64,000 nt of DNA from Lampropedia hyalina DSM 16112 (GTDB lineage Bacteria > Pseudomonadota > Gammaproteobacteria > Burkholderiales > Burkholderiaceae_C). Under the pieces are notes generated by a model that was given only the letters and a program-made list of their open reading frames with translations, was not told the origin of the DNA and searched no databases. Shown piece after piece: positions 5,709-13,500 of this stretch (position 1 is its first letter; each line of letters begins with the position of its first letter). The position numbers and the translations under genes are program-made. The DNA lies in contig NZ_FQUZ01000004.1 in assembly GCF_900129055.1 (NCBI RefSeq), forward strand, positions 62,001-126,000, given 5' to 3'.

Positions 5709-6560
5709 AGGTTCTGCCGCTGCCACCGTTGCGGTGTGGCCTGATGCCCCGAACAGCCTGCGCAGCCGCTGCCAGGCGGCCCGCAGAAACCGGAACATCA
5801 CCCAGGTCAGTAACCACATGCCCAGCACCACCATCACCAGCAGAATGCCAAACGCCAGCGGGTGCACCAGTGCCAGCCAGATTGCGCCCACGGTGGCACC
5901 GTCTTCCACCAGACTGGCCCCGACATTCGAGAGCGGCTCCGGCGAGGTATTGATGGCTGCGCGGGCGGTGGTCTTGGCCACCTGACTGGTGGCGGCCAGT
6001 GTGCCCCCCATCAGGGCGGCAACCAGGGCCATCGAGGCATGGTCTGCACCGAACACCGAAGCGGCCAGCGCGGCTCCGGCGGGCACCCGAATCACGCTTT
6101 GCAGCAAATCCCATACCGAATCCAGGCCGGGAATCTTGTCGGCAAAAAATTCGGCAAACAGCAGGATGCCGCTGAAGAACAACACCACCGGGCTTTGCAG
6201 CACCGACAATGCGCCGGGCAGAGTGACCCACTCCAGATACCCGATCAGCCCGACGATGAAAACCACGGCATACAGCCGCAAACCACTGGCCCAGCCGAGC
6301 GCAGCCGCCAGGGCGATCAGGCTGGTCATGTCCATCGTGCCCAGCGTGGCACTGACCTGCTCGCCCAGTTGGCGCGCTGAATCGCCTGCCAGCGCAGATT
6401 CCGCCAGATGCCAGCCTTCTGTCACACGTTCAGCCAGCCCACGCTCCACCTCCTGTGCTGCCAGTGCAGGAGAGGGTAAAGTGAAAAGAGTATTTGCCGC
6501 CATGCCGGGTATTGTGGGCCAGATTGCCGCGAAAGCAAAAGCCCAAGTTCGAACCGCCAA
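5700..6560 (-). CDS. DUF4126-type multi-span membrane protein
   Basis: This integral membrane protein of up to 286 residues resembles the DUF4126 family, which has no known biochemical role. The family core begins near residue 76 (MDMTSLIALAAALGWASG). It includes the SGLRLY segment, a hydrophobic run around YLEWVTLPGALSVL, the motif FFADKIPGLDSVWD, and a long glycine/alanine-rich stretch with ALMGGTLAATSQVAKTTAR. The last 60 residues hold two more membrane spans and a basic tail. About 70 residues precede the core, so a later start (6503 or 6335) is possible. The gene is flanked by short inverted repeats at 5686-5708 and 6608-6629. Confidence 0.75.
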   Translation of the reverse strand: MAVRTWAFAFAAIWPTIPGMAANTLFTLPSPALAAQEVERGLAERVTEGWHLAESALAGDSARQLGEQVSATLGTMDMTSLIALAAALGWASGLRLYAVVFIVGLIGYLEWVTLPGALSVLQSPVVLFFSGILLFAEFFADKIPGLDSVWDLLQSVIRVPAGAALAASVFGADHASMALVAALMGGTLAATSQVAKTTARAAINTSPEPLSNVGASLVEDGATVGAIWLALVHPLAFGILLVMVVLGMWLLTWVMFRFLRAAWQRLRRLFGASGHTATVAAAEPGD

Positions 6561-6607
6561 GGAAATGCGTCATGCTGGGACTGGAGAGGTGGGCGCAGAC
6601 CTTCCTT

Positions 6608-6629
6608 GGATCATGAACACGTTCTTAAG
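6608..6629 (-). repeat. Right copy of the roughly 20-base inverted repeat
   Basis: On the minus strand this reads CTTAAGAACGTGTTCATGAT. It is the inward-facing partner of the copy at 5686-5708 and is close to the outer end of the element at 24997-25203 (TTTTAGAGCCTGTTCATGAT). It lies between the DUF4126 gene and mod. Confidence 0.5.
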
Positions 6630-6697
6630 TAGCCCAGGTATCGATTGCCACATGGCAGAATGCCAGTTTTCAGAATCAACAAAGCAAGGTGTGCGGC

Positions 6698-8566
6698 ATG
6701 ACGGAGTTCGTATTCAAGGGCAAGGAATTTGTTCACAACCACCACTTGAGTATTCCGCATCGGCCATTGGTTCCTGATGCCAGCAAATCCATACTGCCAC
6801 TGGAGACGGACGGACAGGCCCCGCCCGCGCGGCTGGATGGCAACCTCATCATCCACGGTGACAACCTGCACGCACTCAAAAGTCTGTTGCCGCTGTATGG
6901 CGGCAAGGTGGACTGCATTTTCATTGACCCACCGTACAACACTGGCAATGAAGGCTGGGCCTATAACGACAACGTCAATAGCCCGATGCTGCAAGCCTGG
7001 CTGAAAGAAAACCCCGTGGGTATAGAAGACGGGCTGCGGCACGACAAGTGGTGCGCCATGATGTGGCCACGCTTCAAGCTGCTGCATGAGCTGTTGGCCG
7101 AAACCGGCAGCTTCTGGATGACGCTGGATGACAACGAAGTGCATCGGGCGCGGGGGATGCTGGATGAAATTTTTGGGGAGCAGAATTTTGTTGCCTGCTG
7201 CATTTGGCACAAAATGGATAGTCCGAAAAATACAGCTGAATTTTTCAGTGTCGATCATGACTATTTATTGGTGTATGCAAAAAATCTCAAATCATGGGAG
7301 ATGAATCTTCTACCGCGTTCGAGTGGAATGCTTGCACGCTATAAAAATCCAGACTCTGACCCCCGAGGACCTTGGTTGCTCAGTGATTTAGCTGCACGAA
7401 ATTTTTATGCACAAGGTCAATACTCAATAAAAACAAAATCAGGAAGTGTTATTGATGGTCCACCTGCTGGAAGCTATTGGCGAGTAAGTGAGAGTAAGTT
7501 TTATGAGCTTGATGCAGATAATAGGATTTGGTGGGGAGAAGGTGGTGGTAATAGACCGGGAATTAAAAGATTTTTATCAGAAGTGAAGGATGGTGTTGTT
7601 GCTCAAACAATTTGGAATTGGGAAGATGTTGGTAGTACAAGAAATGCTAAGCAATATCTATCAGAAATTCTTGGTGCAGCTACAGGGCAAGAGCTTTTCA
7701 TAACGCCAAAACCAATTGAATTGGTTCAGCGGGTAATTGATCTTGCTACCAACGAAAACTCCATCATCCTCGACAGCTTCGCCGGTTCCGCCACCACTGC
7801 CCATGCTGTGCTGGCGGCCAATGTCAAGGATGGTGGCAACCGCCAGTTCATTCTGGTGGAGTGCGAGAACTATGCGGATACGCTGACCGCCGAGCGGGTG
7901 CGCCGTGCCATCCACGGCTATGCTTTCAAGGGCAACCAGCGCGAGGAATTGCTGCGCCAGCCGCTGACGTTCACCGACTTGAAAAAGGCCCATGAATCCG
8001 GCGGCGTGCTGGACCAGATTGCCGGCATTGAAAACCTGGAAAAATACCGCTTCGACAAGATCGAAAAGAAACTCAAAGATGGTGTGCTGACCGTGGAAGG
8101 GGTCAAGGCCGTGCAAGAAAAAGTGGATGGGCTGGGCGGCAGCTTCACCTTCTGTACACTGGGCCAGCCCATCGAAATGGAAAAACTGCTGAGCGGCAAG
8201 GATTTGCCCTCGTTCCCTGCATTGGGTGCGCTGCTGTTTCACACGGCCACCAGTGAGGTGCTGGAGGTCGCACAGATTCAAACACCCGATGCCAATGGTT
8301 TGGCCAAGTTGGGCGAGTCGTCTGCCTGGCATGTTTGGCTGATTTATCGACCGGAGCTGGCTTTTTTGAATGCGCCTGAATCGGCCTTTACGCTGGACAA
8401 GGCCAAGGCGATTGCCGCCACCACGGCTGACAAGGCCGATGGTAAAAGGCATTTGGTATTTGCCCCGGCACGATTTGTGTCGCAAAAGGTGCTCAGAGAT
8501 GCTGGCCTGTCGATGGTGGAGTATTCGCCACTGCCTTGGGCACTGTATCGGGCAGAAAGGAGCTGA
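6698..8566 (+). CDS. mod: Type III restriction-modification DNA methyltransferase (Mod)
   Basis: This protein of about 622 residues is an adenine-N6 or cytosine-N4 DNA methyltransferase of the beta order, the Mod subunit of a type III system. Motif IV IDPPYNTGNEG lies near residue 77 and motif I DSFAGSATTA near residue 360. DPPY before FxG is the beta-class order seen in Mod proteins. The target-recognition segment between them (about 7160-7745) is clearly AT-rich, with TTT, TTA and ATA codons rare elsewhere in the window, while both flanks match the GC-rich host. ATG 6698 follows AAGG at 6686-6689; a GTG at 6689 is an alternative. The res gene starts 4 bases after the stop. Confidence 0.92.
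   Translation: MTEFVFKGKEFVHNHHLSIPHRPLVPDASKSILPLETDGQAPPARLDGNLIIHGDNLHALKSLLPLYGGKVDCIFIDPPYNTGNEGWAYNDNVNSPMLQAWLKENPVGIEDGLRHDKWCAMMWPRFKLLHELLAETGSFWMTLDDNEVHRARGMLDEIFGEQNFVACCIWHKMDSPKNTAEFFSVDHDYLLVYAKNLKSWEMNLLPRSSGMLARYKNPDSDPRGPWLLSDLAARNFYAQGQYSIKTKSGSVIDGPPAGSYWRVSESKFYELDADNRIWWGEGGGNRPGIKRFLSEVKDGVVAQTIWNWEDVGSTRNAKQYLSEILGAATGQELFITPKPIELVQRVIDLATNENSIILDSFAGSATTAHAVLAANVKDGGNRQFILVECENYADTLTAERVRRAIHGYAFKGNQREELLRQPLTFTDLKKAHESGGVLDQIAGIENLEKYRFDKIEKKLKDGVLTVEGVKAVQEKVDGLGGSFTFCTLGQPIEMEKLLSGKDLPSFPALGALLFHTATSEVLEVAQIQTPDANGLAKLGESSAWHVWLIYRPELAFLNAPESAFTLDKAKAIAATTADKADGKRHLVFAPARFVSQKVLRDAGLSMVEYSPLPWALYRAERS
7160..7745 (+). other. AT-rich specificity segment inside mod
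   Basis: Base composition changes sharply to AT-rich inside the mod frame and returns to GC-rich just before the motif I region. The frame stays open throughout. In type III Mod proteins the central part chooses the target sequence, so this looks like an exchanged target-recognition domain brought in by recombination within conserved flanks. Confidence 0.6.
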
Positions 8567-8570
8567 TGGC

Positions 8571-10946
8571 ATGGCATTGCGTGAGCTGGACTATCAGCAG
8601 AAGGTATTGAAGCGGCTGGATGAATATCTGCAAGTGCTGGCGCATCAAAAGGCTTCGACCGAAGCTGTTGTGGCTGCATTGCAGTTGGCAGCCAGGCAAA
8701 CCCATAACCCCGCACTGTTGCAACATGCGCCTGACTTTGCATCCTTGACGTGGAATGAGTTGCGGGCAGCGGGCAAATTGCCCGCATCTCGCATGCAGGT
8801 GGACTATTCGCCCCGCACGGATGGCACAGGACAAACGGTGCCGAATGTCGTGTTCAAAGTGCCTACCGGTGGCGGCAAGACGTTTCTGGCCGTGGCGGCA
8901 CTGCCGCGCATTTTCAATCAATGGCTGGGCCGCAATACCGGCTTTGTGCTGTGGGTGGTGCCCAACGAGGCCATTTACACACAGACGTTGCGGCAGTTGC
9001 GTGACCGTCAGCACCCGTTCCGTCAGATGCTGGATGTGATGAGCGGCAACCGCGTGCAGATCATGGAGAAAGACACGCCGCTGAGTGCGACGGATGTGGA
9101 CAGCAAGTTGTGCATCATGCTGCTGATGCTGCAAGCCTCCAACCGCCAGAACCAGAGCACGTTGAAGATGTTTCGTGACCGTGGCGATGTGCACGGTTTT
9201 GCACCGCCGGAAGGCGACCAGCAGGCACATGCGCGGGCGTTGGCAGCAACGCCCAATTTGAACGTGTATGACATGGCAGATGGGGCCTATCACTGGCCCG
9301 TGGTGAAAGATTCGCTGGGCAATGCTCTGCGCACCATTCGCCCGGTCGTGGTCGTGGATGAAGGGCAAAAAGCCACTTCGGAGCTGGCCTACAGTACCCT
9401 GTATGGCTTCAATCCGTGCTTTGTGCTGGAGCTGACGGCCACACCGAAGGATGTGGCGGCCAGAGGAGGGAGGAACCCTTTGGTGGCGCGTCCGGCCAAT
9501 GTGCTGGTGGAGGTGTACGGCAAAGACCTGGATAACGCAGGCATGATAAAAATGCCAATGAATGTGACCCCGTTATCGGGCACAGACTGGCGGGACACGC
9601 TGGCGGCGGCCCTCGAAAAACTCCACACGCTGGCGCAACAGGCAGTGTCATTGCAATCCAATACCGGACGCTATATCCGTCCTATTTTGTTGGTACAGGT
9701 GGAGCGCACCGGTGCGGAACAGCGCGATGGCCAACATATTCACGCATTGGATGCCAAAGAGTGGCTCATGAACGTGGGCGGGCTGGAGGAGGCGGAAATT
9801 GCCATCAAAACCGCAGAAACCAATGATTTGAAGGAGCCAGAGAACCAGAACCTGCTTTCGCCATTGAACCGGGTGCGGGCCATCATTACCAAGCAGGCAT
9901 TGCAGGAGGGCTGGGACTGTCCGTTTGCCTATGTACTGTGCGCACTGGCTGCCAGCCAGAACATGAGTGCCATGACCCAGCTTATTGGTCGAATTCTGCG
10001 TCAGCCACATACCGAAAAAACCGGTATTGCCGCGCTGGATGAAAGCTATGTGTTTACGCACCACGCCAAGTCTGGCGAAGTGGCCGAGGCCATCAAGAAG
10101 CAGCTTGAGCAGGACGGCATGGGAGATTTGGTGCAGGAGATTCGTCTGCCCGACAGCGGAGGTGGCAACAGCGGGGATGGTGGGCGCAACGTCAGACTGA
10201 TTCCGCGTCGGTCGGCCTTTGCCCATACCGAAATCTACCTGCCTATGGTGCTGCATGTGGCAGATGATGGCGTGCGCGAACTGGACTACGAAAACGACAT
10301 TCTGCTGGCACTGGACTGGCGCGGGCTGGATGTTGCCACGCTGGTGCAGGAAATACCAGACAACCTGCAAGTGGCCGAGCAGCAAATGCAGCGCATTGTC
10401 TTGACGGACGATGTAGAAAAGCCTGTAGTGGCTGAACTCGTGGGGGCAGTGGCCGAAAGCACGGCATTTGACACGGTGCATGCGGTGCGCATGATCTCGG
10501 ACATCATGGCGCACCCGTGGTGGGCTTTCGTGCTGGTGGAGGAGTTTGTCAATGGATTGCGCCAATGCGGTTTTTCTGACGAGAAATTAGGACGAAGCGC
10601 GGGGATTCTTATTGCGAGATTGCGCCAATGGCTGGCAAAACAGCGCAATGGCATGGCCGAAAACCTGTTCAAGGAAAAGGTCAGAAGGGGGGGTATTCAG
10701 TTCCGGCTGCGCACAGATCGACACAACTGGAAAATGCCGCTTGCAGAGGTGACTTTCGAGCCGAAAGGGGCGGCCCAGCTTGCCAACGACAATGGGGTTC
10801 CGGTGGAGAAAAGTCTTTTTTCACCGCTTTATGTGAATGAATTCAATCGGGAAGAAAGTCAGGTTGCAGTTTATCTGGATGGCGAAAAAGCCCTGCAATG
10901 GTGGCATCGCAACGCTGCACGCTCACACTATGCCATTCAGGGGTGA
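8571..10946 (+). CDS. res: Type III restriction enzyme Res, truncated after the helicase domains
   Basis: Res is the ATP-dependent translocase and nuclease subunit of type III systems and acts in complex with Mod. The 791-residue product holds Walker A FKVPTGGGKT (about residue 98), motif II VVVVDEGQK, motif III ELTATPK, motif V ALQEGWDCPFAYV and motif VI QLIGRILRQP, so the SF2 helicase part is complete. It stops at TGA 10944-10946, just before the endonuclease domain, which continues in the same frame. A TGG-to-TGA change would explain this, because family members usually have Trp after the ALQG-type segment (from memory). AAGGAG at 8557-8562 sets the start, 4 bases after mod. As written it could translocate but not cut DNA. 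Confidence 0.88.
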   Translation: MALRELDYQQKVLKRLDEYLQVLAHQKASTEAVVAALQLAARQTHNPALLQHAPDFASLTWNELRAAGKLPASRMQVDYSPRTDGTGQTVPNVVFKVPTGGGKTFLAVAALPRIFNQWLGRNTGFVLWVVPNEAIYTQTLRQLRDRQHPFRQMLDVMSGNRVQIMEKDTPLSATDVDSKLCIMLLMLQASNRQNQSTLKMFRDRGDVHGFAPPEGDQQAHARALAATPNLNVYDMADGAYHWPVVKDSLGNALRTIRPVVVVDEGQKATSELAYSTLYGFNPCFVLELTATPKDVAARGGRNPLVARPANVLVEVYGKDLDNAGMIKMPMNVTPLSGTDWRDTLAAALEKLHTLAQQAVSLQSNTGRYIRPILLVQVERTGAEQRDGQHIHALDAKEWLMNVGGLEEAEIAIKTAETNDLKEPENQNLLSPLNRVRAIITKQALQEGWDCPFAYVLCALAASQNMSAMTQLIGRILRQPHTEKTGIAALDESYVFTHHAKSGEVAEAIKKQLEQDGMGDLVQEIRLPDSGGGNSGDGGRNVRLIPRRSAFAHTEIYLPMVLHVADDGVRELDYENDILLALDWRGLDVATLVQEIPDNLQVAEQQMQRIVLTDDVEKPVVAELVGAVAESTAFDTVHAVRMISDIMAHPWWAFVLVEEFVNGLRQCGFSDEKLGRSAGILIARLRQWLAKQRNGMAENLFKEKVRRGGIQFRLRTDRHNWKMPLAEVTFEPKGAAQLANDNGVPVEKSLFSPLYVNEFNREESQVAVYLDGEKALQWWHRNAARSHYAIQG

Positions 10947-11384
10947 CGCAACGAGCGTATCTACCCAGACTTTGTGTTTGCAGTACAGAATTCAAACGAT
11001 GCCCATTCACCATTGCATCGCCTGGTGGTACTGGAAATGAAAGGCGACCATTTGGCTGGTAGCGACGATACACAGTACAAAGCCGAGGTGTTGCAGTTCT
11101 TGACAGAGCATTACTTGACTCATGCGACTGAAAGTGTCGGCACGCTGGAACTGGTGGATCACAACCAGACTGTGGTGCAATGTGAACTGGTACTGATGAG
11201 TGACTGGCAAATACGATTGCCGGGTTTTTTCCAGTGGCGGTTGCTATCATGGAAAATCAACAAATCAAAAACACCATGGATGGTGGCTGTCAAATTCAAT
11301 GACAAGTTTCGACCCAAAGCGGTAGTTCAATGGGAGTCAAGACACGGCTTCTTGGAAGACTTTCCAAAGATGAAAAGCAAATGA
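10947..11384 (+). pseudogene. res: Severed endonuclease domain of Res
   Basis: This segment continues the res frame directly after the in-frame TGA. It holds the PD-(D/E)xK nuclease residues: RIYPDFVF (P-D at codons 799-800 from the res start) and VVLEMKGDH (E-x-K at codons 822-824). Sequence typical of the Res C-terminus follows (YKAEVLQFLTEHY, ELVLMSDWQ). The last 40 or so residues after LPGFFQWR do not look like the family end and may be read-through sequence. A start at GTG or TTG near 10974 would miss the PD pair, so a separate active protein is unlikely. Stop-codon read-through would restore a protein of about 937 residues. Confidence 0.8.
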
Positions 11385-11438
11385 CGGCAGAACCAACGGA
11401 AAACTAACTACAAAATCCTAGTCGATTCACTTTAACCG

Positions 11439-11867
11439 CTATGGAGGATCAGAACTTTTCTTTCTGACGTCTAAATACTTGTAAATGGTGGATTGGTGAA
11501 TTTGGAGTGCGACCGTAATTTCCTTGATCGATCTTCCATGAGAGTACATCTCCTGGGCTTTTTTAATCGTTTCGTCCGTTATGGCTGGACGTCCGACAGG
11601 CTTGGCGGGGAGAGGTTTTATTGCCTTTTTGGATGTTTTCTTTGCCTGTGATTTTTTCTGCAATTCTTCCCATCCTTCTTTTGGAAGGATTCTTTCCAAA
11701 TCTGCCACTCTTTCGATAACTCGACGAACACCTAGAGATAAGTTTCCGTCTCCGATGACTAGCAGCTCCGCATGCTGTTCTGCCGTTAGACGTATGTTTC
11801 TTTTGCGCATAGCTGGTTCGTCGTATGGTGCGACTCGGCGTGGTGCTTTCGGCTTTTCAGCATCCAT
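11439..11867 (-). CDS. Helix-turn-helix protein with resolvase-type C-terminal domain
   Basis: This basic protein has about 142 residues. Its C-terminal 50 residues look like the DNA-binding domain of serine recombinases (Hin/resolvase type): GRPAITDETIKKAQEMYSHG, then RSIKEITVALQIHQSTIYKY. The catalytic recombinase domain is missing. The N-terminal part (RKRNIRLTAEQHAELLVIGD) resembles small DNA-binding proteins of plasmids or phages, and a Lys-rich linker joins the halves. ATG 11867 is chosen; an ATG at 11912 would add 15 residues. The gene is AT-richer than its surroundings and lies convergent to the restriction-modification genes. It may be a regulator or mobile-element remnant. Confidence 0.6.
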   Translation of the reverse strand: MDAEKPKAPRRVAPYDEPAMRKRNIRLTAEQHAELLVIGDGNLSLGVRRVIERVADLERILPKEGWEELQKKSQAKKTSKKAIKPLPAKPVGRPAITDETIKKAQEMYSHGRSIKEITVALQIHQSTIYKYLDVRKKSSDPP

Positions 11868-12327
11868 GTGAGACTTTCTTTTTATTCCGATATTTTCGTG
11901 GGACGCTATCAAGGGAAGAATACAGGCATGGCGACCTCACCGGGTTGCAACCATGGGTGGTTAGGCGGAAGCCTAGAGCCTGATTCTGCCTTTGAAAGGA
12001 ATAGTCATGTGGAAAGCTGTTGTAGTTCTTTTGCGAAATCCGCGCCGTCTGTTGCATGCTATTCGGAGCTATCCGATGGAGTGCAGTTTTATTATGTGGT
12101 TTGTCTTAGTTGTTATGCTGATTTGGCGCTTGCCTTTGCAGTCATAGTTCACATGCCACCGGAGTCCCTTCTCAGATTGGCCGATTACGGAAGTAGAAGC
12201 ATCCTGCAGGCCACCAGACTGTTCCAACTGAACTTTGACAAAATTTTGTCATACTGCGGAATGAAAAGCACTGAAAAAAACATACCAACAAGGCTTGTTT
12301 TTTGCGCAAAACCAGCAGGCAAAGAAA
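11868..12327. other. Intergenic stretch of about 460 bases without a supported gene
   Basis: This stretch separates the HTH gene from the terminator of tRNA-Thr. A reading frame of 161 codons crosses it on the plus strand, but its translation has no recognisable domain, odd composition and no ribosome site. The base composition is mixed and more AT-rich than the host genes, which fits a scar of past insertions next to a restriction-modification island. I see no RNA gene in it. Confidence 0.5.
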
Positions 12328-12366
12328 AAGCCAAATCAACCGCAATGGATTGATTTGGCTTTGTTT
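12328..12366 (-). terminator. Intrinsic terminator after tRNA-Thr
   Basis: AAGCCAAATCAA (12328-12339) and TTGATTTGGCTT (12350-12361) form a perfect 12-base stem with a 10-base loop. On the minus strand, TTTTTCTTT follows, giving the tRNA-Thr transcript an end. The plus strand also has a T-run (TTGTTTTTT), so it may work both ways. Confidence 0.85.
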
Positions 12367-12368
12367 TT

Positions 12369-12444
12369 TGGTGCCGGTTGTCGGATTCGAACTGACGACC
12401 TACCGCTTACAAGGCGGGTGCTCTACCAACTGAGCTAAACCGGC
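12369..12444 (-). tRNA. tRNA-Thr (anticodon TGT)
   Basis: On the minus strand the sequence folds as a full cloverleaf. It has acceptor GCCGGTT/AACCGGC, the D-arm TAGCTCAGTTGGTAGAGC, an anticodon loop CTTGTAA in a CCGC/GCGG stem, and the T-arm with GTTCGAATC. The anticodon TGT reads ACA, threonine. The 3' CCA is encoded at 12369-12371. A TATAAT box lies 9 bases before the 5' end and a strong hairpin terminator follows. Confidence 0.96.
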
Positions 12445-12453
12445 GAAGCGGAA

Positions 12454-12459
12454 ATTATA
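12454..12459 (-). promoter_or_regulatory. -10 box of tRNA-Thr
   Basis: A perfect TATAAT on the minus strand lies 9 bases before the tRNA 5' end, so transcription would start within a few bases of the mature tRNA. No good -35 hexamer is visible at the right distance. Confidence 0.55.
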
Positions 12460-12540
12460 GCGGGTTTTTCCAGGTTTTTTGAGATTGTCTGGATTTTTCA
12501 ATCCGTTATGCTGCTTTCTGGGGGTGTTGGCTCTGGTGCA

Positions 12541-13500
12541 TCAGCGGCGTTTGTTCGGGCGACGCTGGTATTTCTGCTGGCGTTCCTGCTGGTATTCTTC
12601 CTTGCGCAGTTGGCGTTCGGCATCGAGTTTTTCGCCGGTGAGCAGCCAGTTCTCGAATTCTTCGGGGGTTTCCAGGGTGATGCGGCCCAGGGTGGCACTG
12701 CGAAAGTCCTGCAATACCAGTTCGGCGGCTTTCTGGGTGTTGATGCGGCCGCCGGGCAGCAGGGCACCGCGCTTGCGGCCAATGGCTTGCAGCAGTTCGT
12801 GGTCGGGCAGGGTTTGGAGGGCATCGGCCTCGTCGGTGATGGCGTAGCGGTGGTGCAGTTCCGGGCGGTAGTGTTGTTGCAGGTAGGCCAGCAGTTCCAG
12901 GGCGACGAGTTCGTCGTCGAAGGCGTTGCGGCCTATGGAGCCAGCGGCGGCCAGGTTGTAGCCGCTTTGTGCGACGATGATGCGCGGCCACAGCACGCCG
13001 GGGGTGTCGAACAGGTAGAAGCCGTCTTGCAGGGTGTAGCGTTGTTCGGTGCGGGTCACGCCGGGTTCGTTGGCGGCCTTGGCGGCGCGTTTGCCCACCA
13101 TGGTGTTGATGAGGGTGGATTTGCCGACGTTGGGGATGCCGCAGATGAGCACGCGCATGGGCTTGTCCATGCTGCCGCGCGTGGGGCGCAGTGCCAGGCA
13201 GGCGTCGATGAGGGCGCGGGCCGGGGCGGTGTGGTGGCTGTCGAGGGCGATGGCGCGGGTATTGTCTTTCTGCTCGTACCATTGTTGCCAGGCGCGGGTG
13301 CGTTCAGGGTCGGCCAGGTCGCTTTTGTTGAGTACCTTGAGGCTGGGTTTTTGCTGGAGCAGTTCACGCAGCATGGGGTTGGCACTGGAGCCGGGCAGGC
13401 GGGCATCCACCATTTCGATCACGACATCCACGCTTTTGGCGCGTTCGGCCAGGGCGTTGCGCGTGAGGTGCATGTGGCCGGGGAACCATTGAATGGCCAT
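12541..13500 (-). CDS. rbgA: Ribosome biogenesis GTPase YlqF/RbgA
   Basis: This circularly permuted GTPase of 319 residues helps late assembly of the large ribosomal subunit. The permutation is seen in motif order: G4 NKSDL (about residue 58) comes before G1 GIPNVGKSTLIN (about residue 120) and G3 DTPGVLWPR. The N-terminus IQWFPGHMHLTRNAL is typical of YlqF. ATG 13500 is preceded by AGGAG at a good distance; longer reading upstream has no family likeness. The C-terminus is very basic (RRPNKRR), as expected for rRNA contact. It lies before tRNA-Thr on the same strand. Confidence 0.93.
   Translation of the reverse strand: MAIQWFPGHMHLTRNALAERAKSVDVVIEMVDARLPGSSANPMLRELLQQKPSLKVLNKSDLADPERTRAWQQWYEQKDNTRAIALDSHHTAPARALIDACLALRPTRGSMDKPMRVLICGIPNVGKSTLINTMVGKRAAKAANEPGVTRTEQRYTLQDGFYLFDTPGVLWPRIIVAQSGYNLAAAGSIGRNAFDDELVALELLAYLQQHYRPELHHRYAITDEADALQTLPDHELLQAIGRKRGALLPGGRINTQKAAELVLQDFRSATLGRITLETPEEFENWLLTGEKLDAERQLRKEEYQQERQQKYQRRPNKRR

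What the first reader, a model, noticed from the sequence alone, without database searches (positions are those of the whole stretch)
10930..11384. In-frame TGA separates helicase and nuclease of type III Res
The Res frame stops at 10944-10946 and then goes on in the same frame through PD and E-x-K, the nuclease residues. A single base change from TGG would restore the gene. The cell keeps Mod and a helicase-like Res without the cutter, so it may now only methylate, as in regulators of gene expression. It may instead be a recent mutation, a sequencing error, or a read-through switch.
Basis: partly seen in the sequence, partly recalled or inferred. Interest (0 to 1): 0.7.

Follow-up and report, generated by a model that had tools for sequence, protein, structure and literature searches.

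The report
Restriction gene cut off before nuclease
A bacterial DNA-defence gene carries one stop signal just before its DNA-cutting part, so this strain most likely still marks its own DNA but no longer cuts foreign DNA at those sites; losses of this kind are ordinary and already known from other bacteria.

Summary
[quoted passage not shown] The stop sits in a column that is Trp in 25 of 25 same-subfamily relatives examined; neither these nor 12 more distant homologues have a stop between helicase and nuclease. After the stop, 12 of 12 invariant residues remain and divergence is within the range of intact relatives, though at its lower end. This fits a recent nonsense substitution, or one wrong base in the assembly, not old decay. 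Mod is full length and has no switching repeat tract. RF2 is present, no tRNA-Sec reaches the cut-off, and the one tRNA-Trp found is ordinary, so recoding has no support. No ATG, GTG or TTG precedes the catalytic Asp, so the nuclease cannot come from a separate start at these codons. A second, open type III pair lies elsewhere in the genome. Best reading: restriction lost, methylation probably kept; a regulatory role is untested. Low interest.

The parts
6698..8566 (+). mod, type III DNA methyltransferase, 622 aa, intact (DPPY at residue 76 and DSFAGS at 358 of the sequence without its first Met)
   Evidence: PADLOC MTase_III PDLC03640 3.3e-187; Pfam N6_N4_Mtase 5.1e-34; full-length alignment to the Mod next to res in L010-L016, 51-65% identity
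8571..10946 (+). res, translated part: helicase-like motor and spacer, 791 aa
   Evidence: PADLOC REase_III PDLC03653 1.2e-165; Pfam ResIII 6.5e-10; of 175 columns invariant in relatives, 172 kept
10944..10946 (+). in-frame TGA, in a column that is Trp in relatives
   Evidence: 25 of 25 subfamily relatives have Trp
10947..11231 (+). untranslated remainder of res: PD-(D/E)XK-type nuclease segment (Asp 10968-10970, Glu 11034-11036, Lys 11040-11042)
   Evidence: PDLC03653 positions 796-858, E 9.1e-10; 12 of 12 invariant residues kept; codons
11232..11384 (+). further open frame without counterpart in the relatives, ends in TGA
   Evidence: alignment; weak coding signal (training set imperfect)

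Best explanation
A type III restriction-modification operon (mod-res) has recently lost its restriction function through one nonsense substitution at residue 792 of Res. Translation ends after the helicase-like motor and spacer, so the nuclease segment is not made (follows from the sequence). It cannot be started separately at ATG, GTG or TTG with its catalytic Asp, since none lies between the stop and that codon (shown). Mod is intact and most likely goes on methylating its site, because in type III systems Mod generally methylates without Res (published for the class; inferred here). The truncated Res may still join Mod and hydrolyse ATP but should not cut, and may not form the long-lived sliding state (inferred). 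The result is a modification-only remnant at an early stage of decay, with no evidence of selection for a new role.
For: Trp in 25 of 25 subfamily relatives at the stop; 0 of 37 relatives with a stop between helicase and nuclease; 12 of 12 invariant residues kept after the stop and no second stop before 11382; neutral upper bound of about 0.08 substitutions per site since the mutation; Mod complete; RF2 present and no tRNA-Sec over the cut-off; no start codon before the Asp codon. Restriction needs Mod and Res, methylation generally Mod only (PMC8259958, passages).
Against: No reads, so a wrong base is not excluded. No second strain of the species is held. Two type III m4C systems needed Res as well for efficient methylation (PMC8259958, abstract passage), so a damaged Res could also lower methylation. 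The tail keeps its invariant residues as well as intact genes do, which a sequencing error or read-through would also give.
Confidence: 0.72

Rival explanations
1. Assembly or sequencing error: the cell carries a sense codon here and makes a full-length, working Res.
For: Draft genome in 58 contigs; a single base, with everything behind it undamaged.
Against: No other sign of error was found in mod or in the rest of res, which align without frameshift to relatives. The sequencing method and depth are unknown; a single-base consensus error is uncommon in such assemblies (general knowledge).
Confidence: 0.16
2. Selected change: the cell keeps Mod, with or without the cutter-free motor, as a methylation-based regulator, as proposed for Haemophilus and Neisseria mod genes with broken res.
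For: Mod intact beside broken Res; precedents in PMC2667262 (passages).
Against: No repeat tract in or near mod beyond one 10-base unit of 1.9 copies; no relative shares the truncation; the lesion is young, so there has been little time to show selection.
Confidence: 0.08
3. Leaky UGA: near-cognate tRNA-Trp reads the stop at low rate and supplies a little full-length Res with the conserved residue.
For: Read-through at UGA by near-cognate tRNAs for Cys and Trp is the reading favoured for two E. coli genes (PMC5373646, passages). The residue tRNA-Trp would insert equals the conserved one, and the downstream part is undamaged.
Against: RF2 reads RASGAGGQ at its active loop, recalled as the efficient form. 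The one tRNA-Trp found has CCA, a 5-bp anticodon stem and G24, so neither the 4-bp-stem type (PMC13092985, abstract) nor the Hirsh suppressor (recalled). No relative shares the stop.
Confidence: 0.04

Closest known systems
Type III restriction-modification systems, EcoP15I/EcoPI kind; here the subfamily of PADLOC REase_III PDLC03653
   Same: Adjacent mod and res; Mod with DPPY; Res with TGGGKT, DEGQ (as in L013-L016), helicase core and PD...E-x-K segment
   Different: The nuclease segment lies behind a stop. By sequence the Res matches EcoP15I (4zcf_C) only over residues 424-483 (E 0.00027).
Type III systems with inactivated res in Haemophilus influenzae and Neisseria (phasevarions; PMC2667262, passages)
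   Same: mod kept while res carries an inactivating lesion
   Different: There the mod genes are switched by repeat tracts and the reported res lesions include a frameshift and an in-frame deletion; here no repeat tract was found and the lesion is one nonsense codon
The second type III pair of the same genome, L074:3862-9156
   Same: mod followed by res; Res ends in PDF...ETKG
   Different: Another subfamily (PDLC03649 and PDLC03634), frame open throughout; the Mods are 39% identical over 394 aligned residues

Membership tests
Type III restriction-modification system | mod gene with N6/N4 amino-methyltransferase motifs | tested here: met
   PDLC03640 3.3e-187, PF01555 5.1e-34, DPPY and DSFAGS
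Type III restriction-modification system | adjacent res with SF2 helicase-like domain | tested here: met
   PDLC03653 1.2e-165, PF04851 6.5e-10, motifs aligned
Type III restriction-modification system | PD-(D/E)XK nuclease as part of the Res protein | tested here: not met
   segment present in the DNA but behind TGA 10944-10946; met only if the stop is an error or is read through
Type III restriction-modification system | methylation of one asymmetric site, restriction in vivo | not testable with these tools
   needs methylome and phage assays
Phasevarion (repeat-switched type III mod) | simple sequence repeat tract that switches mod | tested here: not met
   TRF on 6400-12500, score 30 and above: one row, a 10-base unit with 1.9 copies at 7114-7132
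Selenoprotein / recoded UGA | tRNA-Sec in the genome | tested here: not met
   11 matches, none over the cut-off (best 43.2 against 47 bits; 150 of 651 candidates scored); the 8 loci typed hold ordinary tRNAs
UGA-to-Trp code change | UGA not used as stop, tRNA-Trp that reads UGA | tested here: not met
   RF2 gene over the cut-off; Mod ends in TGA; the one tRNA-Trp found by similarity has CCA

The most novel reading that the evidence does not exclude
A leaky UGA at an invariant Trp position works as dosage control: near-cognate tRNA-Trp puts exactly the conserved residue into a small share of Res chains, so the cell has plenty of Mod and cutter-free motor and only traces of nuclease-bearing Res, adjustable by release-factor activity.
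Probability: 0.03. Interest if true: 0.55.

Novelty: new member of a known kind. Interest (0 to 1): 0.2.

Why it matters
If real, the strain offers a natural separation of motor and cutter of a type III enzyme close to the spacer-nuclease boundary, and an early stage of decay in which restriction is lost before modification. That res can be inactivated while mod is kept is already in print (PMC2667262, passages), so the value is mainly for annotation and for choosing hosts or methylome motifs.

Tried and rejected
Rejected: another genetic code or selenocysteine. Rejected: the nuclease as a gene of its own, since the first in-frame ATG/GTG/TTG after the stop is GTG 10974, behind the PD codons; rarer start codons were not considered further. 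Set aside: the HTH gene 11439-11912 (-) as part of the system; PADLOC gave no match, Pfam a resolvase-type HTH just over its cut-off.

Led nowhere: AlphaFold of the whole read-through protein (mean pLDDT 64.5, below 50 from residue 764 to 937) and of 143 C-terminal residues (mean 44.4) gave no usable nuclease model, so no fold search was run. A profile of the nuclease segment found no PDB chain up to E 1. hhalign with the C-terminus of the genome's second Res gave a short PDF...ETKG match (probability 35, E 0.0004). The viral-contig scan found no relative. Plasmid records hold relatives of the helicase part in 58 records, all below 60% identity, and of the tail in 2. No empty site was found in the genus: of 9 other genomes, both flanking genes lie on one contig in 3 (G002, G004, G007), hundreds of kilobases apart; in 5 they are on different contigs, in 1 the first gene was not found. 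A self-trained codon scan for other interrupted genes was confounded by antisense frames and is not used; the codon scores have a similarly impure training set. Paper searches were read as listings except where passages are cited.

Dropped before the Trp count: partial or distant matches L005-L009, L030, L031, L062-L071. L030, L031 and L062-L071 were checked apart: the nuclease profile matches in the same stop-free frame as the helicase in 12 of 12, weakly in L062 (E 0.095) and L063 (E 0.0013); in the 9 alignments that were printed the Trp is not generally conserved (Phe in L030 and L031). L005-L008 gave E 0.0077 to 0.11 there, L009 was not checked.

Full report
What was checked. The window is G000:C15:62001-126000 of a 3.18 Mb draft genome in 58 contigs. 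The res frame runs from ATG 8571 to TGA 10944-10946 and stays open to TGA 11382-11384. Before the stop lies a helicase-like Res (Pfam ResIII 6.5e-10; PADLOC REase_III PDLC03653 1.2e-165, profile positions 5-792). After it lies the rest of the same profile (positions 796-858, E 9.1e-10).

The stop against relatives. 21 relatives of Res that cover the junction came from named genome contigs (7), the family (9 besides the own genome, including the genus hit) and the order (5 of the 7 besides the own genome; two were partial). All 21 have Trp, codon TGG, in the column of the TGA, followed by four residues and [VI]-Y-P-D-F. Four more from the class and phylum searches also have Trp, one of them (L061) with F-A-D-F in place of Y-P-D-F. 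None of the 25 has a stop between helicase and nuclease; the TAA reported inside L004 and L072 is the end of those genes. In 12 more distant Res homologues the nuclease profile matches in the same stop-free frame as the helicase (weakly in L062 and L063), but there the Trp is not generally conserved. The window is thus the only interrupted one of 38 res genes compared. The searches took in 399 family, 399 order, 369 class and 398 phylum genomes, sets that overlap in part, with 10, 8, 13 and 3 genomes positive at E 1e-60, the own genome counted each time.

State of the part behind the stop. Of 12 columns there that are invariant in the 21 relatives the window keeps 12 (listed). Of 175 such columns in the whole protein it keeps 172, the exceptions being T501S, P647A and N648H. 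Identity of the tail to each relative, regressed on identity of residues 300-791, gives the window a mean residual of -0.030, third lowest of 22; intact L004 (-0.058) and L014 (-0.031) are lower and L026 equal. Against 17 of 21 relatives the tail is somewhat less alike than expected (z from -2.0 to -0.01), against 4 more alike. So mild relaxation cannot be told from chance. A simple neutral calculation from the 12 kept codons and the lack of a new stop in residues 793-887 bounds the divergence since the mutation at about 0.08 substitutions per site at 95% (indels ignored). The lesion is young, or is an error; it is not an old pseudogene. The open frame 11232-11384 has no counterpart in the relatives and a weak coding signal (imperfect training set).

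What the cell can make. No ATG, GTG or TTG lies between the TGA and the catalytic Asp codon; the first is GTG 10974. UGA is a normal stop here: Mod ends in TGA, and an RF2 gene is present with RASGAGGQ at its active loop (that this is the efficient form is recalled). tRNA-Sec does not reach its cut-off (best 43.2 against 47 bits), and ARAGORN finds ordinary tRNAs in the eight loci taken from that search, which hold 9 of its 11 matches. The one tRNA-Trp found by similarity has anticodon CCA, a 5-bp anticodon stem and G24. It is therefore not of the 4-bp-stem form of PMC13092985 (abstract and outline), nor the Hirsh suppressor (recalled). Background read-through by near-cognate tRNAs remains possible, as favoured for two E. 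coli genes in PMC5373646 (passages).

The partner. Mod (6698-8566) is intact and aligns over its whole length to the Mod beside res in the seven named loci L010-L016 (51-65% identity); in the other loci the stored stretch cuts mod short. Its AT-rich middle (GC 0.38-0.47 over 7201-7800) lies where a target-recognition domain is expected (inference). TRF finds no switching repeat. In type III systems methylation generally needs Mod only and restriction needs both; but two m4C systems also needed Res for efficient methylation (PMC8259958, passages). In EcoP15I a helical spacer (aa 620-810) leads to an endonuclease domain that is disordered in the crystal (PMC4490356, passages), and the nuclease lobe has been proposed as part of a sliding clamp (PMC11142916, section 14 and passages). 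A Res that ends at residue 791 should keep motor and spacer, lose cleavage, and perhaps lose stable sliding (inference).

Interpretation. The best reading is a recent loss of restriction with methylation probably kept. Inactivated res beside a working mod is known in Haemophilus and Neisseria, where a dedicated regulatory role was proposed (PMC2667262, passages). Here nothing beyond the broken res points to regulation. The genome holds a second type III pair, open in both genes, Mod 658 aa and Res 1010 aa with a PDF...ETKG C-terminus. The strain may therefore still restrict at another site; whether the two Mods share a target is unknown. Near the locus lie a resolvase-type HTH gene, tRNA-Thr and a ylqF gene, and the two flanking genes are not neighbours in the genus, which fits insertion of the operon at a variable place (inference).

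Limits. No reads, no second strain and no metagenome scan were available. Structure prediction of the nuclease segment failed, so its assignment rests on sequence: the family profile, the catalytic residues and the alignment.

Noticed in passing
L074:3862-9156 (G000:C47, about 7861-13155): A second type III mod-res pair, both frames open, of another PADLOC subfamily.
   Followed up: partly
window 11232-11384: About 50 codons of open frame behind the nuclease segment that the relatives lack; perhaps a lost original stop.
   Followed up: partly
window 8571-10943, residues 647-648: A Pro-Asn pair invariant in 21 relatives reads Ala-His in the window.
   Followed up: no
window 11439-12444: Small gene with a resolvase-type HTH (11439-11912, minus strand) between the operon and tRNA-Thr (12369-12444, minus strand); the flanking genes are not neighbours in the genus, so the operon may sit in a variable spot.
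   Followed up: partly
L030, L031, L062-L071: Distant Res homologues share WWHRN or W-RN...PDF...E-x-KG but not the Trp before it (9 of 12 alignments seen).
   Followed up: partly
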